A stretch of 64,000 bases of DNA. Origin: Apostichopus japonicus. Lineage: Eukaryota > Echinodermata > Holothuroidea > Aspidochirotida > Stichopodidae. The translations under genes and the position numbers were made by a program. The notes below the pieces were generated by a model. It was given only the letters and a program-made list of their open reading frames with translations, was not told the origin of the DNA and did not search any database. Below, piece after piece: positions 10,000 to 25,657 of this stretch. The stretch covers positions 1,524,501 through 1,588,500 of the forward strand of contig NC_092561.1 of assembly GCF_037975245.1 (NCBI RefSeq), in the 5' to 3' direction. The number at the start of each line of letters is the position of its first letter. Within the stretch, counting starts at the first letter, position 1.

Positions 10000-11597
10000 A
10001 TGAATATGGATGGCCACGATCCGCATTAATATCACAGTTTACGTTGGATTTATTAGGTGCCAGGAAGATTTATATCGTATTCCTATCATGGTTGTGTGGG
10101 CAGGCTATTCGTTTAAGACATATTTCAATTTACTTTCTTTAAGCGAATAAGACTAAGTTTCATTGTTTTTCCCGAAATCTTTATAAGGGCGAACAATTGG
10201 TAGTAAGAGTTCTAACTGAGAGAGGCCTATACACCCCCTTCCCGACACCCCCCCCCCCTTCGTCGCCCTCGCTAGTTACACCACTGCAATGGACAATACC
10301 GACTATTTTAAGCATGAATTGTCAGTCGAGTGCAATTGTAGTTGCATACGCGCACCATCATCTGTATTTCTCCTCAAACATCGAAACAAGACGCTTTTCC
10401 AGTTTCTAAAGGTCAAACATTTGCCTCAATTCCTCAAGTAGCCTGTCATTGTCATTGTCGACACTTTTAAATTTAATTGTTAATTCGTCAATTTAAGGGA
10501 ATTATTAACTTTCGAGAAAAGATTGTGACCTTGGAAACAGCATCTGAAAAAAACATATGTTGGCGTAAAACGGTTATACGATGTAGTTTACCGAGAAATA
10601 TTTTCTGCCTTTGGTTTGTAACGATGAAAGGCAACTCTACAAAAACGATGGCGCTCTTTTTAAAGAACATCACGGCCAGTGGACTTATTATGGCGAGAGA
10701 GTCAGCCCATAGCTTTGATCAGCTCACAGCAAGCATATTTATGGAAAGAGCTCACATAAATAGGACTCCATGATCAAGCAAGCGCAATTTTTGTTCGTGG
10801 AATATAGCTACGTCTCTCGGGAGGATGGTTATGCCAGCCCCCTCCCCCCCCCCCCCCGTGGTCAACTCAGCTTTCTTTTAATCAGGCTTGTTCTTGACTA
10901 TAGTTAAATGTTTCCATTTCTATTAATTGCTTGTCTACTTTGCACCATATACTCGTATTTTATCCCTTTTTGCTGCATATTTTTCGCTATACTGCAGGAG
11001 CTGCGCTACGCACAATTTGATAAGACTTGTTACCCACCCCATCCCCTTCCTTACCTGCAAGCGCAACTTGGTTGTTTCGAATAAATATTGAGCAGGTTGC
11101 ATACTGCCCTACTGACCGTGACACACGTTTCAACTCAACCGTATCAACCTGTAGTGGTGTTTGTGTGAGTGTGTGCGTTTACGACTGACTAGTTGCGACA
11201 CATCGAGATTGCCATTTTATAATATGTCGCATCACGGCATTTGTAAACTCTTCATATAGTATTTCCTGACTGACAGTTTACAATGTGTGGCAGGTCATAG
11301 CTTGCAGTGTACTGTGGTGGGTTCACTCCTGCTCAAATTAACCAGTTTTAACAAACGTAACCGATCGCGGCGGAAGTCATGTTGCATGTTGACCTAGCCG
11401 AGAATCGGTCGCTAACAGAAAACAGTCGTTCGGGCGTAGTGCGCTCACGACGATCGATCTGCATCAGGTTACAGGGTTACAACCCCGACACGACACTTTA
11501 ATGTTCTGTCACAGTCATTTAACCTCCCCTCGAGAGACAACGGCGGACGGCATGTCATCTATCTTCTCCGTCTGCCAGCTACAGGAAAGGACAATTA
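10000..11597. other. Non-coding interval left of the large transposon
   Basis: No gene recognised. It holds poly(C) runs near 10248-10258 and 10842-10857 and otherwise unremarkable AT-rich sequence up to the CACTG end at 11598. Confidence 0.45.
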
Positions 11598-11614
11598 CAC
11601 TGTTAAAAAAAATT
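11598..11614 (+). repeat. Left terminal inverted repeat (CACTG...)
   Basis: The 17 bases CACTGTTAAAAAAAATT are exactly reverse-complementary to 24873-24889. The flank ends in TA. Confidence 0.85.
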
Positions 11615-11990
11615 GTAAATTTACAGTAAATTCCTGTCGATTTTTACAGAAAAAGCCGGTTTTCTATATTTACATGTAAACGTCTGTTATTTTAACAGAC
11701 GTTTTCTGTACAGCAAGTGGTTTACACAAAATTGTAGTATTTTTCCCTCCAAAGAAAATTTACAGGAAAATCCTGTAAAATTTTCCAGAATATGTCAGTT
11801 TTTAATATTTACATGTAAAATTCTGTGATTTTTACAGACGTTTTATGTTACAGCAAGTGGTTTACAAAAAATTGTAGTATTTTTCCCTCCAATGAAAATT
11901 TACAGGATAATTCTGTAAAATTTTCCAGAATATGTCAGTTTTTTATATTTACATGTAAAATTCTGTGATTTTTACAGACGTTATGTGTGT
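11615..11990 (+). repeat. Left subterminal tandem array, ~140-bp unit
   Basis: Nearly three units can be counted from the palindrome TTTACATGTAAA at 11669, 11808 and 11948. Each also has GTTTTCTGTACAGCAAGTGG-like and TTTTTCCCTCC segments. Subterminal repeats in plant En/Spm bind the accessory protein TnpA; a similar binding role here is inference. Confidence 0.75.
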
Positions 11991-13635
11991 CATGTACTTT
12001 ACAGAATAAGTTTGTTTTGCAATCTAATGCATGTAAAATTGGAATTTGAAGAGCGTTATACGGAAATATTCTTGAAGGTGGAAACACGTTACCAATATAC
12101 AATGGTATACAACAAAATCCATCGTGCAGTAACATTACCGTTTGGCAAAGAAAAGAATGAAATCCAACCATGAAGCTATTACCGATAGCTCCATGATCCA
12201 ACCCACAATTACCAGTTAACTTTGTCCCTACAGTCGTTTTCTGCCTTAGTGTTACATAAACTTACATTTGAGCAACAACCCCCACCCCCGTGAGGCTCAT
12301 CAATGACCCTTAATTGTCCAGCGAACGAAAACAATGTGAAAGATAACCTTGAAGGGTCTGTAGGTCAAATATGTGAAATCTAACCATTTCAAGAGTTTTA
12401 GTAACGAATTACTTGTAAATGCCTAACGTGTTAACTAATGAAAACGACATAGATGGTACTGTTCCAATTGGTTTACCGTTTGTTTAAGGAGTATACAACT
12501 TCCGAAATCCTATCAAAACAATTACTGATGTGAGCTGCCAAGAATACAATGCCCAGCCTTCAAGATGTAGTCTAATTCATTGTTTTAATGTTAACTTGTA
12601 TTGTCAGTACAACATGAACCGATGACAATTCCGTGTGCTCAATGTACGGTCACACATGCAGCTATTTATAGCTAAATGGGTCACCGAACGTATCAAAATG
12701 TTGTTAAATATGTCTAGTTCAGCAAATGTCATTTCATTCATCTGAACCACCACCCCCCCCCCCCTCAACCCCTCAACCCCTCCTCCCATTCGACCCAGCC
12801 GGTCTAGCTCGATGATTGGCGTCAACGTGTCTGTAACAGCTATGACGTCTCGCGCACAGGCGGGAATTATTTTGATACATGGGCGGCTGCCGTTGGCTTT
12901 CCCGGAAAACTTGGCTACAGTCCAGCATGCAGTCACATGACCCAAGTTGGCGCGATGAACGTCCAGTACATGCTGCGCTGTTCTGTACATTATGATTGAT
13001 CGCATCTCGCATTAACGTACGTATGAAGTGTATAGATTGCACAATACAATACTACAGCGCTTCAAAGTACGTCGACACGAGAGGAAAACAACTGCCGTTG
13101 CTGTCCAGTAGGCTACGCACATTTCCACACCAGAACAAGACTTCATTGAGTACTTCGTCAGACGTGAGTGGTAAATTTATTTGAACTATATGCCACATTT
13201 GCATTATTATTATCAACAAAACAACTTTGAAAGTCTGGTCATAACAAAAAGTTAGTTTATATTTTAGTTATAACCGTAGGGCCCAGTGCCTATAACGTAG
13301 ACTAGACGAACGATAATTAAGAGTTAGACAACCTATCGTCGCCCTACCGTGCATTTTGATATGTGCGTGTGAAGCTTAGCCTTGCTTCATGTTGTTTAGG
13401 TTAATATGATATAATATTATAAGGGTGGGTACATTGTAACTTGTAAGTTAATTGGTGCTGATAGCCTACATACATGGATGATATTGGCTCTCATGTGGCA
13501 TGTAATATGAAGTCTTTAGATTAGCAAAGGTTAATTAGCCTTTTAGAACATGACTGAATTTGAAAAGGCATAATTCATGTTTCTTTCAAATGATCAGTTT
13601 TGATTAGCTCCAATCAATAGTGAAGCAGGGCAGAA

Positions 13636-16377
13636 ATGTACACCTGTAAAATATGCAATACACTAACAGCTACTATCCGTAGCTATGTTGATCATGTGAG
13701 TTCCCATAGGAATATACCTCGAGTGAGATTTCCATGTTGTTTTGTTAATTGTGGCTATACCCTATCAACTTTTGCTGCAATGAAGATTCATGTGACTAGG
13801 TATCACCGCCATCTTCAAAAGCAAACAGCAATTGCAGCAAATCTTCAGTCAGTTAACCTGTCATTGATTTGTACGTATGAAATCTGTCAAAAAGAACTCA
13901 CAGATCTGTCCTCATATTTGGCACACTTAAAAGCACATATAAGAAAAGGCCAAATTGTATCTTGTCCATATAAGAAGTGCAAAAGAGATTTTTCAAAAAC
14001 CAGTTCATTTACAGCACATTTGTCACGTTGTCACAGAAACTGGGGAGCTGTAAACATTTTGGAGAAATACAAACTTTCTACTTGTGATCATTGCTCTTTG
14101 GATCAAGATATACCTCTAGACACTAACTGCTTTGATGTGTCTACAGAGACTGATAGATTTGTCAGTGAAAATGACATAAGCTGTGATTTCGAAAACAGTA
14201 ACAATTGCCAAGGTAGGGCGCAAGAAACAGGTCAGTCTAGACTTCAATTTCAACAAAATTTTGCCTTGTTTCTTCTGAAACTTCAGGCAAAACAACTTGT
14301 TCCATCACAAACAATTCAAATGATTGTTGAGGAGCTTCAAACTATTCACAGTTTATGTCAACAAGATCAGGTTTTGAAAATTACTCAAAAATTGAGAGAT
14401 GAGGGTTTAGCAGAAGAACGTATCAAATGTGTAGCCGATTATATGAATGAGATAGATGCATGGATTGCTATTGATAGTTGTAAAGGAAAACTCAGAACGC
14501 AGCACTGTAGAAAAGAGTACTATAAATCAGCATTCAAGTTTGTTGCTCCAATTGCAATATCACTAGGGAGAGATTCAGCACAAAAAATGCATTACTATCA
14601 TTACATTCCAATCAAGGAGAGCATTCAATTGCTCCTTTCAGATGATTTTGTGTTGGGACAATGTCAAAGTAGGCACCAAAGTGAAGACTCATCTGTTCTT
14701 ACTGACATAGTGGATGGTACAGTTTTTAAAAAAAATAGTTTGTTTCAAAGTTATGAAAGATCTTTATCCATCATTCTCTATCAAGACTCATTTGAAATCG
14801 TAAACCCACTTGGGTCGGCAAGAAAAAAACACAAAATACTAGCAATGTACTTTACACTTGGAAACATCCAACCTGAGTACAGATCTGTTGTTGATGCAAT
14901 GCAGCTTGTGTTTTTGTGTAAAGAAGTTGATTTTAAGGTCTTTGGGCAGCAGAAGGTTTTTGAGAGAGTGATAAATGATTTGAAAACCTTAGAGGAAGTT
15001 GGAATAGAAACAAATGACGGGGTGGTCTGGAAAGGTGCGCTGTCTTGTATATTAGGGGATAATTTAGGTTCCCATTGTATTGGGGGTTTCATTGAGAGTT
15101 TTTCAGGAACTAACATGTGCCGCTACTGTTTAATAACTTCACATGACTTCAAATGTAACGCACCATATGCTGTTGGGAAGCCTAGAACCAAGGAGGAGTA
15201 TGATTCTTGCATTGCACACCTTGAAGATCATGAAGAAAATCATCATCAAGGAATTAAATTTAATTCATGTTTTAATTCTTTGAGGTATTTTCATGTGTGT
15301 GCACCTGGTTTGCCACCATGCCTGGGGCACGACTTGTTTGAAGGAGTTGTTGATTACGATGTAGCCATGTTTATTCAATACTGGATTAAACAAAAACATT
15401 GGTTCACATATGCAGATTTGAATATAATGTTGGTACAGTTTAAATTTCAAGGACGCGATGCAAACAATAAACCTGCATTTGTAAATTTATCAGGTAACCG
15501 CTTAGGTGGTCAGGCCGTTGAAAACTGGAACCTTTTGAGACTTCTTCCAATTATTTTGAGTGCATATGTGAAAGATCATAATGACCTTGTATGGAGACTC
15601 TTTCTTCTTTTACGAGAAGTTGTTGAGTATGTGTGTTCTCCAAAGATTTCACATGAGCAACTTGCATATTTAAGGGTGATAATGGAGGAATACTTGACTG
15701 AGAGAAAACGACTCTTTGCTGATACTCCCCTCAGACCAAAACATCATTTCCTGAGCCACTATCCAGATTTAATTATTAAGTTTGGACCATTAATGAGAGT
15801 GTGGACTCTACGCTTCGAAAGTAAGCACTCCTATTTCAAACGTTGTGCCAGATCTGCACAAAATTTCATCAATGTTACACAGTCTTTAGCAAATCAACAC
15901 CAGTACTTTCAAGCTTATAACAGCTCAGGGAAATTATATCCTGATAGATTGGTTATTGAAAATGCCACATCCCTCAACATAGAATGTTTCATGCCTGAAA
16001 TAAAGCATGCTTTGCAGGCAGCAAATGTAAAGTTTGATGATTCTGTTATCAGTGACAGAGTTCAGATGTTTGGCACTTCTTACCAGAAGGGTTTCTTTGT
16101 AATATGTCAGTGTTCTGATACATGCTTTTCAAGTCTTAAATTGGGTTGCATTTTGTTTGCAGTTGTTGAAAGCCAAAATATTGTGTACCTTGTCGTAAAG
16201 ATGCACAGTGGATCATTCAATCACACCACTGGAGTTTACTGTTTGCAGCCTTTGAATATAGTGTCTTGTGTGCAGATTTCTAAGCTTGCTGATTATTTTC
16301 CATTGTCGGCATGTTTTGTGAGAGGAAGGCTTTTGCTTTCACTAAAGCATAAGCCATTAGCTGCAGTGCTTTTATAG
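13636..16377 (+). CDS. EnSpm/CACTA-type transposase with N-terminal zinc fingers, 913 aa
   Basis: A single open exon encodes 913 aa. An in-frame TGA lies 15 nt before the ATG, which supports this start. Four C2H2 zinc fingers come first: C4-C7-H20-H24, C34-C39-H52-H57, C79-C84-H97-H101 and C110-C115-H128-H133, probably for DNA binding. The catalytic region has the metazoan EnSpm pattern. D384 lies in YQDSFEIVNPLG, D475 in LGDNLG just before a CRYC pair, then HDLFEG (D566, E569) and RFESKHSYFK (E728). I expect a DDE-type cut-and-paste enzyme acting in the nucleus on the CACTG ends; which E is catalytic is not settled by reading. No stop, frameshift or obvious decay was seen, so it may be functional. 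The SAM gene follows on the same strand. Confidence 0.88.
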   Translation: MYTCKICNTLTATIRSYVDHVSSHRNIPRVRFPCCFVNCGYTLSTFAAMKIHVTRYHRHLQKQTAIAANLQSVNLSLICTYEICQKELTDLSSYLAHLKAHIRKGQIVSCPYKKCKRDFSKTSSFTAHLSRCHRNWGAVNILEKYKLSTCDHCSLDQDIPLDTNCFDVSTETDRFVSENDISCDFENSNNCQGRAQETGQSRLQFQQNFALFLLKLQAKQLVPSQTIQMIVEELQTIHSLCQQDQVLKITQKLRDEGLAEERIKCVADYMNEIDAWIAIDSCKGKLRTQHCRKEYYKSAFKFVAPIAISLGRDSAQKMHYYHYIPIKESIQLLLSDDFVLGQCQSRHQSEDSSVLTDIVDGTVFKKNSLFQSYERSLSIILYQDSFEIVNPLGSARKKHKILAMYFTLGNIQPEYRSVVDAMQLVFLCKEVDFKVFGQQKVFERVINDLKTLEEVGIETNDGVVWKGALSCILGDNLGSHCIGGFIESFSGTNMCRYCLITSHDFKCNAPYAVGKPRTKEEYDSCIAHLEDHEENHHQGIKFNSCFNSLRYFHVCAPGLPPCLGHDLFEGVVDYDVAMFIQYWIKQKHWFTYADLNIMLVQFKFQGRDANNKPAFVNLSGNRLGGQAVENWNLLRLLPIILSAYVKDHNDLVWRLFLLLREVVEYVCSPKISHEQLAYLRVIMEEYLTERKRLFADTPLRPKHHFLSHYPDLIIKFGPLMRVWTLRFESKHSYFKRCARSAQNFINVTQSLANQHQYFQAYNSSGKLYPDRLVIENATSLNIECFMPEIKHALQAANVKFDDSVISDRVQMFGTSYQKGFFVICQCSDTCFSSLKLGCILFAVVESQNIVYLVVKMHSGSFNHTTGVYCLQPLNIVSCVQISKLADYFPLSACFVRGRLLLSLKHKPLAAVLL

Positions 16378-16781
16378 GCATGTAAGTGGCAAATGCTATA
16401 CAACTGGGGCGTATTTTCATTGACTTAAGATGGTGCAATGTATCATCTTCTCTTAGAACCATGCTAATGAACTTGAAGCATTACATATATGTACTTGTTA
16501 AATAGCTTATGCATTTGTTGATATTACTGCAGAAAAACTGTTGTAAAGTTAGGAAATAATTATCAATTAATATCTAATTAAGGCTTTGTGTTTACATGTA
16601 AAGTGCCTTCCATTTAAAGAACTATGTTTGAGTGCAAGCTCAATTATGGAACAACTAGGTGTATATAATGGGCCTTACAAAGAAACTTATAGTAAGCAAA
16701 TGTGGCGTATGAATTATTCTGAATTGAGAAGGAACTAAAACCTTCACTTCCATTACTCAGGTCTGAGGTTCTCTTGTTAAA

Positions 16782-16971
16782 ATGAGCGTGTCAGAACAAT
16801 CAGATGATACAATTTGTCTTGAAGATGTTGCTTCATCCATAATGCTTTCCATAATGGCTGCTGGTGTGGAAAGTGTGTGCGATCTCAAGCTGATCACTGA
16901 TGATGACCTTTCCAGTGTACTGAAGCCAATACAGAGGAGAAAGCTGTTACTAGCATGGGCAAACAAGGCAG
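16782..16971 (+). CDS. SAM gene exon 1 (SAM domain)
   Basis: The exon runs from ATG to the donor G|GTAAGC and encodes the whole SAM-like region, with DLKLITDDDLSSVLKPIQRR as the core. It ends in phase 1; joining to 19291 gives GAA AAG TTG in frame. A good acceptor (CTTCACTTCCATTACTCAG, ending 16760) lies 21 nt before the ATG, so a 5' untranslated exon further upstream is likely. Confidence 0.8.
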
Positions 16972-17929
16972 GTAAGCAGAAATATAATTGCACTTTCTAA
17001 ATATGATTATTCTCCTTTTTTTTGAGGAAAGGGGAGGTTAAGAAGTAAGTTACAAGAGGAGATGGAAAAATGTCTAAATAGTAAGTACATGTGATACACA
17101 GAAGTTTCTCTTATTGTCTAAGACAGTTGCTGGTACCACAAATTGAATAAGGAAACTGGTCTCATAGTACATCATTAGCATTTTTGTAATTCTCTAAAGA
17201 AAATTTTCTGGTTAATTATTAGTATTATACATTAGATTTGAATTTTTTTAAGTAGTTTTCAAGTAGTGAGCAAATAGAACACACAGAAAACACCAGGTCA
17301 AACTAATGAAATGATACACCACATACCCAAACTAAAATATTTATCATCAAGAAAAGAGGAAACCCTTCTTTTTAATTCAAATTAAACATGTTGTTGTTGT
17401 TGTTGTTATGTTGTTTGTAGAGTATGTTGAAGTTCATATGGGAGTATGACAAGGCTAAAGGTCACCTTGAAAAACAACCACTATGGGGTAGTATGGGGTA
17501 CCTCAACTCTGGGATCATACTTGGCCCCCACTTTGGGGTCCAAATAAGCGGGCACTACGCAAACGTCTGCAGTGACCAAATAATGCCATTGACGCAACAA
17601 TTTGATATGTATGAGTGTTACTTTGCCCCAAAAACACTTGTATCCAATAATCAACAAAAATTGCCCCAATAATTTCACACTTTGGCTATACTGATTGAAA
17701 GATGCAGAGAACTGTGGCAATGGCTTGCTTTCCAAACAGTATAAGAATACACCTTGACAACTTAACAAACTATAAAGCAAGCCTTGTCCGATGCTTATGC
17801 ACAAGGTCCATATGGCATACGGTACAGTGTGTACAAAGCCATTGCCTACGTCAACAAACAAGCAGCGACTTAACCTATAATATAATAATAATAATAATAA
17901 TAATATAATAATAATATAATAATAATATA

Positions 17930-18692
17930 CAGGGTTTTTGTTAAGAAATGAAGTAGGTGGGTCAAGTTGAAAAGTAGATGGGACTGTCTGTACGCGGACA
18001 TGGGGGAGGGGTCTAAGCCGGAAAATTGCAATTTAAAAAGTCTCTAGATGCAAAATGGTTCAATATACAGTTGTTTGGTCAATGATATTGCCCCCTCCCA
18101 ATCACCCCTTTCTTCTGTCCTATTTTTCTTTTTTTCTCCTGAATTTTTTTATTAACACTCGGGTCATGGAGCCTAGGGAGGTAGCTATGCCACTGAACGG
18201 AACTTAGCAAGGGTGTGACGCACTTGCTGCATTAAATGAAGTGCGATCATAACAAAATGATAATAGGTCTACGGTACTACAAAGTGAGTAGGATTTTACT
18301 GCCAAAAAATACCCAACTAGGTCTGTGATAGAACCTTCTGTTTTTTATTCAGCTTTTATCTCTGTTGAGCAACAATTTGTATGTCAAGAGAAGCCCTTTG
18401 CCTACCTCTACTCTCACCCACCCCTCGGCCTCATCTCCTCGACCATACTACTAATGTTCAACTTCTTGTAGTTTTTACCAACAGTTAACTGCTGTGACAG
18501 TTTCAATCACACCTGATCTGGTTGTGGGTATTTACTCCTCTCGATTTTTTTCGTCATTTTTTTATTTATTTTTTAAATTTTTTTAAATTTAATTTTTTTT
18601 TTTTTTTTACTGAGCGTCGCAAAGTAGCCGGGTCATGTACGTGCAGTAAGCGGGTCATTTGACCCGGGTCCCGGCTACTAACGAAAACCCTG
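17930..18692. mobile_element. hAT-like non-autonomous element inside SINE tail
   Basis: The ends are CAGGGTTTTTGTTA and, inverted, CAGGGTTTTCGTTA. CAGGG-type termini with short inverted repeats fit hAT elements. The flanks share at least AATATA, but the AT-repeat context makes the target duplication ambiguous. The 763-bp interior has a right-hand palindromic segment with repeated GGGTCA motifs and no transposase. Confidence 0.65.
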
Positions 18693-18764
18693 AATATAAT
18701 AATAATATAATATATATAATATAATAATAATAATATAATATAGTAATAATATAATAATAATAAT

Positions 18765-19053
18765 AATAATCAGCAGTTATTTTTACGACGCTTAAGCGAC
18801 CACAAATGTGGGAGAAGACCGCAAGGGCTTATGAATTACAACTTACACGTCGGGCGGCTTCCAATTCAACATTTTAACTCAAATTTGGAATCTTTTCAAT
18901 TTAGAAAGTCATTTCAGATGGGAAAACCGTAGATTGCTCTTGGTTGAAAAACCCACCTTACTATGATCCGGCCGGGAATCGAACCCCGAACCTCCCGATT
19001 GCTAAGCCTCATTGCTTCAAATGCCACCGCCTTTATCTTCTCGGCCACAGCAA
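18765..19053 (-). mobile_element. tRNA-derived SINE with ATT-repeat tail
   Basis: Read on the minus strand, the head has an A-box-like TGGCCGAGAAGATAAAGG (19047 downwards) and a B-box GGTTCGATTCC about 60 bp later, as in tRNA-Leu/Ser-like heads with a long variable arm. A ~200-bp body follows and ends in (ATT)n. It lies in the first intron of the SAM gene, antisense to it. Part of its tail is split off by the hAT-like element, with matching ATT repeats at 17882-17929. Confidence 0.75.
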
Positions 19054-19290
19054 CCTAAACAGACGTGTCAGAGAATGCCCCTGTTGCCAATTGAAGATAT
19101 GCTTGATTCGATAGATTGCGAGCTTGAGTGCTGCCCCTGTTTGTTGTGTAAATGCTGATGTTCTGTGAGTGTCCAAAAAACTAGTACCTTAATGCAATAA
19201 ATGTCTGTTATCAGGAAATAATTTATCAAGGTTGTTTATTCATTTCATATCATCTACTTTCATTGATGTGACATATTTTCATTCTTAAAG

Positions 19291-20285
19291 AAAAGTTGCT
19301 TGGATCAGAATCTTCACAATCATCTGAACCCGACTCTGTGGCCAGTTCACCAGGCTGCAGCTGGGTGCCCAGTTCAGCAGGATCAAGTCCAGCAGCGGTA
19401 ATTGCAGATTGGGCAGAGTCATTTAAAGTTGATTGGGATAAAATGCCTAAAAGCCTTACAAAATCACTCCAGAAGAAACAGAGACCCACTCCCAAAGATC
19501 GGCGTGAAATGATCAGAATATTATGCAATGACATAATGAAAGTTGAGTCAAGTCCAGGACGAAAGCACCTTTCTATTATTGCACAGAAGATCGTTCGTGA
19601 GTTTCCAGAACCCTTTAAAGATGACATTGAAGGACTTGTTGTTGGTAGTGGATATGCATCCCTTCTTACACAGTTGGAAAACCGTATGAGCAATATCAAT
19701 AGAGGCAAATTTCACCTAAATGTTGGTTACCCCCTGTTTGTAGAGGGTGAACAGAATGAAGCACTAACAAAGAAGCGTAAACTCAGCACCTCATATGGCT
19801 GCAAAAACTGGCAACCAGAGGACCTACCTGAAGGGGAGGATCGAGACACGCAGAGAAAAAAGATAGATGACTTAAAGGTGATGCATGAACTTAACATATG
19901 GGATGACAATGAGGTTGTTTTCCTCATGAAAACTGTATTTCCAACCATCCGTGCCAAGATAAACAGTCAGCAAGTTCCTGTATGTGCTCTCCTTGATGAA
20001 TATCCTTTCTTGTTTGAGGAGGTTGGGATGATGGGACATTTTGAAGATTTAGTGGGCATCAAACTGAAATCAGTTCTCACTACAGCTTTTATAGATAAAA
20101 GTCCACGAATTCAGAAGTTTCTGCAAGTGTCAGCAAAGAAGAAGAAGGAGGTGCAAAATATAATAGCTGATGTGGAGAGTGCTAAGAAGGAAAGTGGTGA
20201 TCATTCCCCTGATGTTCCAGGAATTATTCTCCTCCTCTGCAATCACCTTGGAGATAAATGGGACGATCTTTTCTACCTTGCAAAG
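19291..20285 (+). CDS. SAM gene exon 2 (main body)
   Basis: This 995-nt exon has acceptor TTCATTCTTAAAG and donor AAAG|GTAAG and is open throughout. It starts with a Ser/Pro-rich stretch, then a mixed charged, probably helical region ending DKWDDLFYLAK. It ends in phase 0. Confidence 0.8.
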
Positions 20286-20722
20286 GTAAGAAGTAGCTAC
20301 CTTTATAAATCATTAAGCTTGTGAACAGTCTCAGAATAGCACTATTTGTCTGTGTTTTTGTGTTTTGCTCTGGTTTGTCGTTCTTAAACTTACAGTTATG
20401 TAGATGTATTGGTCAAGTTGATTGACTTTATAACGATTTTCCTCTGCGATGTTCACTGTTTGTAGGTCAGCTGTAATTGTTGTGTATTGGGACTCTGAAG
20501 TCCAAAGTTCAGTACATCATATGCCATCAGTTAATTAAGGTCTTCCCCATTGTCATCATTTTGATTTCAGGGATACATATTGTCCCTCAGTTTCATTGTT
20601 TTATGTTATGCTTTGGAAGAAACTCCTGTTTCCCAGATGGCATCTTGAATGTTTTGTCCCACTATATAATAAGATAAGTATTCCAAACAATTTTATTGTT
20701 CCTACATTTACATTATGTTCAG

Positions 20723-20789
20723 GAAACCAGTACTGTGCAGAATATCACTAAGGATCTGAAGTCAACATCCCCATGCATCATTATTCAAG
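20723..20789 (+). CDS. SAM gene exon 3
   Basis: This short exon (67 nt) lies between CATTATGTTCAG and G|GTGAGA. It encodes ETSTVQNITKDLKSTSPC followed by IIIQ and ends in phase 1, which joins exon 4 as a Gly codon. Confidence 0.75.
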
Positions 20790-20939
20790 GTGAGAAGCAT
20801 TTGGAGGATTTTGCTCTAAGATGCATTTCCTCCAGTACATATGCACTGCTCTTTTTCCCTTTTTGGTTTGGATGATAGTTGTAACATTTGAAATTTGTGA
20901 TGGTGAGTATGTGTGCGTGTGTATGTATTTTAGTGATGC

Positions 20940-21190
20940 CTACCTTGTAAACACAATTTCTCATGAAAGGAAGCTTAGACAGATCTCATAGTTGGCATGT
21001 GGGTGTACCCGATAGAGTACAAGAAGCCTATTGTTTTTGGCAAAGGTCAAAGATCATTTGGGGTCAACAGAGGTGAAACTGAATACTTTGTAAACATGAT
21101 ATCTCAAGAAGGGAATCTTGGACAGATCTCATGTGGTATGTAGGTGTGGTCACTTGAATCAACAGGGGTCAAAATTTGGGAATCTTTGAT
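20940..21190. repeat. Imperfect ~144-bp duplication in SAM gene intron 3
   Basis: The segment with CTTGTAAACACAATTTCTCA at 20943 recurs at about 21087 as TTTGTAAACATGATATCTCA. Both are followed by GACAGATCTCAT and a GGTGT motif. Intronic and non-coding. Confidence 0.55.
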
Positions 21191-21741
21191 TAGAGAAACT
21201 TAGGAAGTTATATGATGGCAAGTGTGTCAATGACACCCCATAGTGCACTATCACCTGTGGAAGACAAAGTCATGAGTCCATATGAGATTTAACTGGGAAA
21301 ACTCTGTTACTGCATCAATTCAGCATGTATGTGTGCATTTGATGCTCAGCATGTAACATGAAACTCAAGAACTATAGCCCATTTTTGACTTCATATGTGG
21401 TAAAAACATTTTGGTTGACCATTGCAACATTTTCAATGTCATTTTTGTGTTGCTGAGGGTGCCTCAGTAAATCGATATATCAGATAAACTGTTTTTTCTT
21501 TCATATCCACACTGACAATATTGAAATCTGCCATCAACGAATATATCGAAATACCAAGTGCATCCGAAACAAACCTTGAATACCGGTAAAAATAATATTG
21601 AATAAAATATAATGACCCATTAGTGCACGCGAGTTGGAGTATATTCACGCTGCAACTGTAAAGTAGTGGTAGTCATAGCAGTGGCATTAACTTTAACTGG
21701 ACATTCTCTTAATAGTTCTAATTGATATTTATTTTTTGCAG

Positions 21742-21909
21742 GTCCAAACATGTACACTGGAAGAAAGTTTATGTTGGCAGTAGATATGGTTATTGTTAAT
21801 GACCACATTCAAACTTTTGAAAGTGCAATGACCATGCTGTTTGCAATGTTTTCATCTTAAACATTGAGTATTCATCTGAAGGTGCAACTTTAATGGAGTT
21901 TATCCAGCG
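21742..21909 (+). pseudogene. SAM gene exon 4, carrying a 1-nt frameshift
   Basis: The acceptor is ATTTTTTGCAG and the donor CG|GTGAGT. The first part (GPNMYTGRKFMLAVDMVIVN...) is open until TAA at 21858. The second part is open in another frame as LNIEYSSEG followed by LMEFIQR, and only that frame has the phase needed to join exon 5. One missing base explains both. Confidence 0.75.
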
Positions 21910-22659
21910 GTGAGTAGGCTGAAAGTACCCTAGTAATAGTTAACCATTGTTATTTTGTGTGGACATTCCCTTGACATGGAATGTAAGAGTGTATGCATAT
22001 TATTAGCCACCTTCAAAAGATCAGCCGATCATAAAGGTACCAATAAAGAAAAAAAAATCAACAAATTGCAGTTAACTCTACTCCTAGGCAGATCATTGAA
22101 ATAAATCATACTCTGTTCTCAGTTACAGCTGATTTACTTATTTTGTACTATTTGTTGTGGTCCAAGAATAACAGCAGCTTTGGTAACCTTTTGTAAACAT
22201 TGATGACCTTTACATTATTTTCACCAATGGAAAGTTAGTGTAAATAGTTGAATGGCATGTTTTATTATTTTGGAAAAGGGTGGGAATGTATGAGTTTGGT
22301 TACTTACTGAGAACACCTGCACAATTTGTTTCAACTATAGGGTATCAGCTTAAACTGAACAAAATTGAAATTAAAAGAGGAGTCACAAATTAGCTCTTCT
22401 TTTCAGATCATGATTTCCTAGAAAACTGTTGAATTCCAAAGGCTTGTAAATTAAGACAGGTATCCAGCTCAATTGCTTCTATCAATGCCAGTGAGCACAC
22501 ATACAATTGGAAACTGAGTTGTGTCACATCTTACTATCATGTATGACATACTGTAGTGTAAATTTGGGACCAAGGGAAATTAATTGTTAAATGGTTTAAT
22601 AATTGCAAACTTATTTGAACTTTATGACTTCACAGTTCTAATTTTGCTCCTCTTTGCAG

Positions 22660-22789
22660 CTGCTTTGTTGGATTGAATCCAGAAAAGGGAAGAAAGACCC
22701 CCAAATCCAAGAAGAGCTATCCTGTCAACCCAAAAATTTTGGCTTTGGTTGGAAACCTGAAGGAGTTTGAGTCAGATTGGACAGTCTAA
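22660..22789 (+). CDS. SAM gene exon 5 (C terminus)
   Basis: The acceptor is TGCTCCTCTTTGCAG. The exon begins RCFVGLNPEKG, ends EFESDWTV and then stops at 22787-22789. The Lys-rich middle is typical of a solvent-exposed tail. Confidence 0.75.
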
Positions 22790-24109
22790 ATGCTTTTCAG
22801 GCACTTCCCGTGATTGGTCACATTAGTCTGACAATTTGGTAACTTTGGATTATAAATGTAGGTCACTTGGTTGATTTAAAGTGTTCCTAGTTGAGAAAAT
22901 GTTAGCCAGCCTCTTGAGCCTCCTTAACTGGAACCATAGACTCTCCAGCTACAGAGAAGTCTCTTTTACAAATGAACAGTTAAACATTTATACAGAGTTC
23001 AAACTATTGTGTTTAACTTTGTTGGTGGATATTTACAAGGTTTTACTTGTTGACAAAATTGTTAAAGACTATTATTTGGTGCTATCATGACACCTTTCCA
23101 ATAACTCCATAAACTCTAAACTCTTCCAAGCAGGTTCACAAATGTTAGAAAAGTTTTGAATCCATAATAGTTTCAGATGTCAAGTTATTCTGTTAATTTT
23201 GTTAATGCTATAAGCTTGATATCTAAACTATATTTTGTTGTCAAAATATAAAATCTCTCTGCTAAATGTTGACATGAAATCTTTTCATAAAACTGCTCCT
23301 TCCACTCAACAGCAGAAGCACAGGAATATAAGGACAACTTTTTTAATCATTTCCAGGTACAAAGGTCAAATCATTGTTTATATATCTTTTGATCAGATGA
23401 TTTACAATATCTTTGGTTAACAGAATAGTTAATCTTTATTCTTACGTATTGTAACATATCCTTGTCTTTAACTTCCACTTTGAACTTAAAGGGCTAAAGA
23501 AGGTCATGAAAATTAGAAAAAGTATACAATCCTTATCAGCGATAGAGGAGTTACCACAGTTAAAGGTATTAATTTTCTGTGAACATTGATATGCCCATTA
23601 AAGTGAATATGTTATATGAGCGATATATTTAATAATGCTAGAACATTTAAAAATACATGAAATGAGCATAGTTGTAATAAAGTTAAGTGAAGAATAGTGA
23701 AGACACCTAAGTTTCTGTGGTCACATAATACAGTGACCTTTGCATACTTCAAGTGCATCTGTAAATAAGAGGGAAAGGAACTTTGTTGTAGAGCAATAGA
23801 AAGGGCGAGGAACTAGCAGGTGTCAAAGCTTAGTGTTTTATGATCAGTTAATTGTGAAAACTTTCAGTGGCTGATCCAGGATTTCCTGAAGTGGCCGAAG
23901 AGACAAATATGGCCACATACAGACTTATCAGTATATTTCCAAACAATGAAAGTATCGTTTGTATAACAAAACCTTTTCCAAAAGAAAGGCTGGGTCACCC
24001 AGCAAATTCCCAGTCATCAATAAGAGATTGCCTTCTGATGTTCAGTCTTACATATTACTTTTAAGGTTTTGACATTCAAAAATATGTTTCAACAAGTTTT
24101 GAAGTTGTA

Positions 24110-24115
24110 AATAAA
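24110..24115 (+). promoter_or_regulatory. Candidate polyadenylation signal of the transposon transcript
   Basis: This AATAAA lies ~1.3 kb after the SAM gene stop and just before the right subterminal repeats, a plausible transcript end. No AATAAA was seen between the two genes (16378-16760). Confidence 0.4.
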
Positions 24116-24184
24116 AGTTTCAGAGAACAATAAGTTGTTTTTTTATTTTATAATCTCACTGATAATAGTAATTCCATCTGACAG

Positions 24185-24815
24185 CCAATTTTACAGACAA
24201 AGACCCATTTATTGCAAGGAAAAATACTATAGATAACATTGAAGACTAGACTTTACCTAAAAGATACAGTAAATTAAAAGTCACAATACAGTTATTTTAC
24301 AGAGAAAATTACATATTGCAAGAAAAAACTGTGTAAATAACGGTTTCAGACTGTTTATTTTCATAGAATGTAGTGTAAAATAACGGCCGTCATATAGTAA
24401 TTTTAGGGATAAAAACTTTTATAATGCAAAGAAAAACTGTATAATAACATTTTTAGACTGTTTATTTTACATAGAATATGGTGTAAAGTAACGGTTGACA
24501 TACAGTAATTTTACGGACAGAAACTGTTATAATTGGGGGGAAAACTGTATAAATAACAGTTTCAGACTGTTTATTTTACATAGAATATGGTGTAATATAA
24601 CGGTCGTCGTACAGTAATTTTACGAATAGAGTCTGTTATAATGGGGGAAAAAAACTATAAATAACAGTTTCAGACTGTTTATTTTACATGGAATATGGTG
24701 TAAAATAACGGTCGTCGTACAGTAAGTTTACGGACAAAAACTGTTATAATGAAAGATATAAACTGTATAAAAAACCGTTTTAAACTGTTTATTTTACATA
24801 GATTATCTGCAGTTG
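24185..24815 (+). repeat. Right subterminal tandem array, ~110-bp unit
   Basis: At least five units are marked by ACTGTTTATTTT(A)CA at 24350, 24457, 24566, 24673 and 24784. Each also carries a CAGTAATTTTACGGA-type segment and GTATAAATAACAGTTT. The unit sequence differs from the left array but shares short ACAG/TTTAC motifs. Confidence 0.75.
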
Positions 24816-24872
24816 GAAATAACAGACATTTTCTGGAAACTCTGCTGCCAGAGAAATTCTGTTTTTTAACAG

Positions 24873-24889
24873 AATTTTTTTTAACAGTG
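24873..24889 (-). repeat. Right terminal inverted repeat (...CAGTG)
   Basis: AATTTTTTTTAACAGTG is the exact inverse of 11598-11614 and is followed by TA. Just inside is another small inverted pair, TTCTGTTTTTTAACAGAA. Confidence 0.85.
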
Positions 24890-25657
24890 TACTAATTTAA
24901 GAAGCTTGATAAGCGTCCAGTGGGTAATATGGCATATGGCAGATGTCCCGTGTCCTCGTCCGTACTGTTTTTCTATACACATTTCCTCTGCTTCATTTTT
25001 CAATGCCTTTACAGAGATTTTTTTAAGAGACAGATTGCGTATCTATATCTCCCCTTGAGATGTTCTAAGTCTAAAGCGTGAGAAATCTCGCCACAAAATC
25101 TCACTTCTGTGTTGATACTGATTAAGCGAGGCAGATTTCTAAGGTTGTCATGGTGATAGTAATGCTATAACTATTGGAGCGTTAAAATCCCAGTTTTGAG
25201 TAATCCGATTGGATTCCAGGGGTACATCTGCTCATCAATTGTATCGTCTGCTCAAGCCGTTGATAAGTATATACGATGCTTATACACTATTACAATGCCA
25301 AGTGGCTACCGGATTAAGCGAGATTTAAGCGCCAAAATTTACCTGTATTGATTTTCCCTTTGAACCCTATACTTTAATGAACGAGTCAATTTTCTTAAGG
25401 ATGAATGGAACTATTGTAAATCCTGTATCCCCTAGATTTGCAGTTCATAGCTGACTGTCATCGAAAGGCTCCAAATTTACGGTTCACAGTCTACGAAAAC
25501 AACTTTTCTCAGACTTTTCTTTATGTTTAATCAGTCTATTCAACTTGGACTAACCGTGATTACCACAATAAAAGTACAAATGGCAAATGGACTACAAAAT
25601 GTATGTTTATTTATAAGTATAGCCTGTGTGTCCAGACTATATATCTGGTTTATTTAC

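What the first reader, a model, noticed from the sequence alone, without database searches (positions are those of the whole stretch)
11598..24889. Intact-looking two-gene CACTG transposon pairing a zinc-finger EnSpm transposase with a SAM-domain partner
Seen: exact 17-bp CACTG ends bracket a 913-aa open transposase frame and a separately spliced five-exon gene starting with a SAM domain. Known: CMC/EnSpm elements have CACT(A/G) ends, and plant En/Spm uses a second protein (TnpA) that binds subterminal repeats. Inference: the SAM protein is the animal counterpart of such an accessory factor, perhaps assembling by SAM oligomerisation. The SAM gene resembles host-annotated 'SAMD3-like' proteins, so many such annotated genes may be transposon cargo.
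Basis: partly seen in the sequence, partly recalled or inferred. Interest (0 to 1): 0.85.

Follow-up and report, generated by a model that had tools for sequence, protein, structure and literature searches.

The report
Two-gene jumping DNA element lineage
A mobile DNA element in what looks like an animal genome carries a cutting-enzyme gene plus a second gene that accompanies it in many related element families, and that second gene has different front ends in different families, perhaps alternative self-assembly modules.

Summary
Real, mobile and multi-copy, but this copy is not intact. The element (11598-24889) has exact 17-bp CACTG ends, subterminal repeat arrays, and 2-bp target duplications (18 TA/TA, 2 TG/TG, 1 mismatch, of 21 copies). 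Its 913-aa transposase has C2H2 fingers and the D-D-C(2)C-H(3)H-E signature of the EnSpm/CMC group, invariant in 13 of 13 family representatives.

The partner gene belongs to the element. All 45 transposase loci merged (50 of 383 candidates scored) have it downstream on the same strand. So do six divergent families and three further loci. The two proteins' divergences agree (Mantel r 0.93). In these capped searches, 57 of 60 partner loci tie to the element.

New here: the partner's N-terminal module differs between families (SAM-like, CIDE-N, or an unassigned region) while its core is kept. An acceptor-like site precedes the partner start in 10 of 11 families, suggesting one pre-mRNA, as in maize En/Spm.

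The window's own partner gene is broken (exon-1 deletion, exon-4 frameshift). Its SAM domain is weakly supported. TnpA-like function and the SAMD3 link are untested.

The parts
11596..11597 (.). left target-site duplication TA
   Evidence: TA on both sides here; TA/TA in 18, TG/TG in 2, TA/TT in 1 of 21 copies
11598..11614 (+). left terminal inverted repeat CACTGTTAAAAAAAATT
   Evidence: same position in other copies
11617..11988 (+). left subterminal array, about 2.6 units of 140 bp
13636..16374 (+). transposase, 913 codons: N-terminal C2H2-type fingers, DDE-type catalytic core
14785..14787 (+). first candidate catalytic Asp (D384)
   Evidence: invariant in 13 of 13 family representatives
15058..15060 (+). 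second candidate catalytic Asp (D475, GDNLGSH)
   Evidence: invariant in 13 of 13
15817..15819 (+). candidate catalytic Glu (E728), after C(2)C and H(3)H
   Evidence: invariant in 13 of 13
16745..16760 (+). acceptor-like site just before the partner ATG
   Evidence: 10 of 11 families have one within 100 nt; shuffled mean 4.3; 1 of 1000 shuffles reaches 10
16782..16971 (+). partner gene exon 1, coding part (SAM-like module, 15 residues shorter than siblings)
19291..20285 (+). partner gene exon 2 (conserved core)
20723..20789 (+). partner gene exon 3
   Evidence: GT-AG borders and phase
21742..21909 (+). partner gene exon 4; frame broken in this copy, stop at 21858-21860
22660..22789 (+). partner gene exon 5 with stop (not reached in frame in this copy)
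24320..24806 (+). right subterminal array, about 4.5 units of 108 bp
24873..24889 (-). right terminal inverted repeat
24890..24891 (.). right target-site duplication TA

Best explanation
This is a cut-and-paste DNA transposon of the EnSpm/CMC(T) group whose lineage uses two element proteins. The transposase binds and cuts the CACTG ends (inferred from its catalytic signature and fingers). The partner protein is an inherited part of the element (shown by linkage and matching divergence). It probably acts as an architectural, TnpA-like factor: its core contacts the subterminal arrays and/or the transposase, and its N-terminal module makes copies of the protein assemble, bringing both ends together (inferred). 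Partner mRNA is probably made from the same pre-mRNA by splicing over the transposase ORF (inferred from acceptor-like sites and the short gap). Because several N-terminal modules occur (SAM-like, CIDE-N, an unassigned region), what is kept may be the ability to assemble, not one fold (inferred). This copy's partner gene is defective, so it would rely on siblings for that protein.
For: Linkage: 45 of 45 merged transposase loci have the partner downstream on the same strand (50 of 383 candidates scored). Six of 6 divergent families have a partner-core match downstream, weakly in L085 and L087 (E 2e-4, 3e-4 in a small set). Three of 3 further loci have a partner start, two of them (L098, L100) looking like members of families already seen. 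Four of 4 partner loci fetched from one further group have a transposase C-terminus upstream, E 4e-16 to 2e-5. Co-inheritance: Mantel r 0.93 for 9 families, 0 of 20,000 permutations; r 0.885 for 7, 3 of 5,040; clades (B,C), (A,(B,C)), (D,F), (H,K) in both trees. Mobility; ends shared by family B at 52% transposase identity. Catalytic signature 13 of 13. Module change: CIDE-N 1.9e-10, above Pfam's cut-off, in family G. Shared pre-mRNA; in family E the acceptor AG falls in the transposase stop codon.
Against: No transcript, binding or transposition data. The core has no PDB sequence match at E<=0.1 and its AlphaFold model failed (mean pLDDT 37), so DNA binding is not supported by fold. The SAM assignment is below curated cut-offs. 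Duplications are 2 bp, not the plant 3 bp. Upstream of the transposase no strong 5' donor was seen in 3 of 6 families scanned (B, C, D), and no acceptor-like site near the transposase ATG in 4 of 6 (A, C, D, F). Subterminal TTACAG/CTGTAA enrichment is clear in A (12 per 1,200 against 9 per 12,092) but modest in B (10 per 2,600 against 10 per 6,119). Many transposase rows were not checked for a partner.
Confidence: 0.6

Rival explanations
1. The partner is transposon cargo with an anti-silencing or regulatory role (for example affecting host chromatin or the element's own transcription), not part of the transposition machinery.
For: Fungal EnSpm and other transposons carry TET/JBP genes thought to evade silencing (PMC12730594, passages). 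The partner core has no recognised DNA-binding fold. Changing interaction modules would suit a regulator.
Against: All 45 merged transposase loci keep it on the same side and strand, and the main clades of the two trees agree, whereas PMC12730594 reports TET/JBP genes passing between transposon lineages.
Confidence: 0.25
2. A host SAMD3-like gene was captured once by an ancestral element and has since become a passenger without function.
For: The multi-exon structure is host-like; the partner is broken in this copy and in a decayed subfamily.
Against: Open partner frames are kept in families whose cores are only 17-55% identical, which a passenger would not be expected to keep.
Confidence: 0.08
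3. Chance adjacency or an annotation artefact: two unrelated genes trapped between ends.
For: None found.
Against: Linkage in 45 of 45 loci and in divergent families.
Confidence: 0.01

Closest known systems
Plant En/Spm, Tam1 and Tgm CACTA elements (tnpD/tnpA type)
   Same: CACT(A/G) ends, subterminal repeats, transposase plus second protein, transposase ORF in the intron-1 region of the second gene (PMC2613891 passages); both proteins required in maize as cited there.
   Different: 2-bp not 3-bp duplications; C2H2-type fingers on the transposase; SAM-like, CIDE-N or unassigned N-terminal modules on the partner; no sequence comparison with TnpA was made.
Animal TRC elements (SmTRC1 and relatives)
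   Same: Animal CACTA-related transposases with Transposase_21 similarity and 2-bp direct repeats (PMC1636069, abstract and one section).
   Different: TRC ends begin CCC; the parts read mention no partner gene.
CMCT clade including ESTA, Plavaka, Transib/RAG
   Same: D-D-C(2)C-H(3-4)H-E signature, CA..TG termini in most cases, 2-5 bp duplications (PMC12730594 passages). RAG1/RAG2 is a comparable two-gene case (PMC4411706, search listing only).
   Different: No relation between this partner and RAG2 or TET/JBP was tested.
Host-annotated SAMD3 / SAMD3-like proteins
   Different: In this genome no clear stand-alone host locus was found among the loci examined.

Membership tests
CMC/CMCT (EnSpm group) DNA transposon | D-D-C(2)C-H(3-4)H-E catalytic signature | tested here: met
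   All seven positions invariant in 13 of 13 family representatives
CMC/CMCT (EnSpm group) DNA transposon | Transposase_21 (PF02992) domain | tested here: inconclusive
   Hits in 4 of 12 transposases scanned, E 5e-4 to 6e-3, all below the Pfam cut-off; none for the window protein
CMC/CMCT (EnSpm group) DNA transposon | CACT(A/G) or CA..TG terminal inverted repeats | tested here: met
   Family A and family B; none found for C-G in the stretches fetched; H-M not looked at
Plant-type CACTA/EnSpm | 3-bp target-site duplication | tested here: not met
   2 bp, TA or TG; agrees with animal TRC and the CMCT range of 2-5 bp
Plant-type CACTA/EnSpm | Repeated subterminal motifs | tested here: met
   Arrays of 140 and 108 bp in the window; 8-mer TTTACAGA/TCTGTAAA recurs in the ends of A and B
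Plant-type CACTA/EnSpm | Second protein binding the subterminal repeats (TnpA) | not testable with these tools
   Needs a binding assay; only linkage and layout shown
SAM domain proteins | Match to a SAM profile at curated threshold | tested here: not met
   No hit in the window exon or the longer sibling; sub-threshold SAM_TNK 4.8e-4 in family B; PDB profile search shows no SAM
CIDE-N proteins (family G partner) | Match to CIDE-N at curated threshold | tested here: met
   41.1 bits against cut-off 23.5, on two exons joined at a predicted splice; the exons apart give 0.0017 and 0.21
PB1/ubiquitin-like (families H-M partner) | Match to a PB1 or ubiquitin-like profile | tested here: not met
   No such hit in Pfam; PDB hits only at E 0.39 and above

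The most novel reading that the evidence does not exclude
Animal EnSpm-type transposons carry an obligate TnpA equivalent built from a conserved core plus an interchangeable polymerisation module (SAM, CIDE-N or PB1-like), and host genes annotated SAMD3 or SAMD3-like, vertebrate SAMD3 included, are its domesticated or still mobile descendants.
Probability: 0.35. Interest if true: 0.85.

Novelty: new variant of a known kind. Interest (0 to 1): 0.68.

Why it matters
If the partner is required for movement, animal EnSpm elements would join plant En/Spm and RAG as two-protein transposition systems. A change of module at a fixed position would point to self-assembly as the conserved need. It could also turn an annotated 'host' gene family into transposon content in animal genomes and give SAMD3 an origin. 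It is testable: some siblings in this genome read open in the transposase, exon 2 and exons 4-5, although their exon 1 was not examined.

Tried and rejected
Single-sequence AlphaFold of part of the window's partner exon 2 gave mean pLDDT 37 and was not used. PDB profile searches of the partner core, the SAM-like exon and the unassigned N-terminal region gave no significant match. Scans of viral contigs confirmed no relative. CACTR end pairs for families C-G were not found in the fetched stretches; family B's came only after fetching more, so the others' ends remain unknown. Paper searches listed no title or abstract start linking a SAM or SAMD3-like gene to EnSpm elements; 58 was poorly specific. 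Rejected: chance adjacency, and TA as part of the terminal repeat, because two copies have TG on both sides. Hydra species are reported enriched in CIDE-N domains beside transposase genes (PMC7642931, passages); a lead only.

Rows and choices: one search used all 62 rows and 62 of the 109 rows (the rest judged by eye further fragments of the same loci); merging gave 45 and 60. One search shows 12 further partner loci: 5 have a transposase nearby, 7 were not tested. Of the further partner loci four were tested. The transposase rows, and those beyond the representatives fetched, were not each checked for a partner. In one search the threshold (8 of 12 pyrimidines) was mine, the shuffles kept single-base content only, and for family L the 'start' is the first recognised codon, not an ATG. 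In one search I cut the first 110 residues of partners H and K. E-values of my own hmmsearch runs are for small fragment sets.

Full report
What is there. The element at 11598-24889 has exact 17-bp CACTG inverted ends, a left array of about 2.6 units of 140 bp and a right array of about 4.5 units of 108 bp, a 913-codon transposase (13636-16374) and a five-exon partner gene on the same strand. End searches list 30 places that match at least 99% of the left query and 30 that match at least 98% of the right query; I paired these by position into 30 elements of 9.6-20.7 kb. Among the window copy and 20 others, 18 have TA/TA, two TG/TG and one TA/TT beside the ends: a 2-bp target duplication, since TG/TG excludes TA as fixed terminus.

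The transposase. Thirteen family representatives all keep D384, D475, C495, C498, H704, H708 and E728, the D-D-C(2)C-H(3-4)H-E signature given for EnSpm, Mirage, Chapaev, Transib and RAG1 in PMC12730594 (passages). The nine compared pairwise are 27-61% identical. Pfam Transposase_21 matches 4 of 12 scanned, below cut-off. The N-terminal region matches solved C2H2 proteins (best E 1.2e-6); I count four fingers by eye. Family B, 52% identical, has the same CACTGTTAAAAA ends with TA at both sides in the two copies compared.

The partner gene belongs to the element. From 62 rows each transposase and 60 partner loci result. Every transposase locus has a partner match downstream on the same strand, the nearest 1.3-8.4 kb away. 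Of the 14 partner loci without a scored transposase, two gain one, five have transposase remnants upstream (L090, L091; L101, L102, L105), four lie between family-A ends, and three stay unresolved (C5:21406569, C17:25559784, C21:6349924; about 3.75-4.6 kb examined). Six more divergent families (L083-L088) have a partner-core match downstream, weakly in L085 and L087; three further loci (L098-L100) have a partner start, two of them resembling families L and E; four of four partner loci of one further group have a transposase C-terminus upstream. Candidate lists were capped and many rows were not checked, so these are counts of what was examined. Divergence of the two proteins is correlated (Mantel r 0.93 over nine families, 0 of 20,000 permutations; r 0.885 over seven, 3 of 5,040), and main clades agree. 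Together this shows long co-inheritance; it does not show function.

Different front ends. Families A-F share a homologous first exon. Its SAM label rests on sub-threshold hits: SAM_TNK 4.8e-4 and SAM_2 0.0094 in B, 0.017 in C, 0.066 in F where CARD ranks first (0.0074), 0.17 in E; none in D, the window or its longer sibling; the PDB profile search finds no SAM. Family G instead starts with CIDE-N (1.9e-10 on joined exons). Families H-M start with a mutually similar region that looks ubiquitin/PB1-like to me but has no library match. From recall, SAM, CIDE-N and PB1 domains can all polymerise; I take this as a hint that assembly is the conserved property.

How it may be expressed. The gap from transposase stop to partner start is 14-666 nt in the 11 families measured, with no AATAAA/ATTAAA in 10 of 11; by coordinates family C has roughly 2 kb. 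An acceptor-like site lies within 100 nt before the partner start in 10 of 11, against 4.3 in shuffles, 1 of 1000 shuffles reaching 10. In family E its AG overlaps the transposase stop. This fits one pre-mRNA in which the transposase ORF lies in the partner's first intron, as described for maize En/Spm (PMC2613891, passages). Against it, strong upstream donors were seen in A, E and F but not in B, C, D, and acceptor-like sites near the transposase ATG only in B and E. No RNA was available.

This copy. The partner gene in the window is defective: 15 residues are missing from exon 1 relative to 4 of 4 readable siblings, and a one-base loss in exon 4 relative to 7 of 8 siblings gives a stop at 21858-21860. 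Siblings without these two defects exist. So 'intact-looking' does not hold, although the transposase frame is open.

Verdict. Membership in the EnSpm/CMC(T) group is well supported; the plant 3-bp duplication is not met. That the partner works like TnpA is the best guess (about 0.6 for the whole mechanism), not shown. The paper searches named in Tried and rejected did not list this pairing, which is not proof that it is unpublished; Repbase was not searchable.

Noticed in passing
G000 C12:6005466, C9:15259430, C19:8043953, C12:6012983, C13:21347974: A subfamily about 92% identical to family A in the transposase match shows the same number and kind of stops in transposase and partner in several copies: a defective element that apparently multiplied using proteins supplied by relatives.
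   Followed up: partly
G000 C2:5905724-5913020: In the C2 copy the partner exon 2 match is split by about 7.3 kb, suggesting a nested insertion.
   Followed up: no
G000 C12:6009001 and C12:6010913: Two elements of the decayed subfamily lie head to head about 1.9 kb apart in opposite orientation.
   Followed up: no
window 17870-18780: Intron 1 of the partner holds two AT-rich simple arrays (17877-17929, 18693-18770) around other sequence, possibly a nested repeat; the transposase-to-exon-2 gap is about 1 kb shorter in the C17:30.79 Mb copy.
   Followed up: no
PMC7642931 (passages): CIDE-N domains are reported over-represented in two Hydra genomes together with transposase genes, as expected if some are transposon partner genes.
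   Followed up: no
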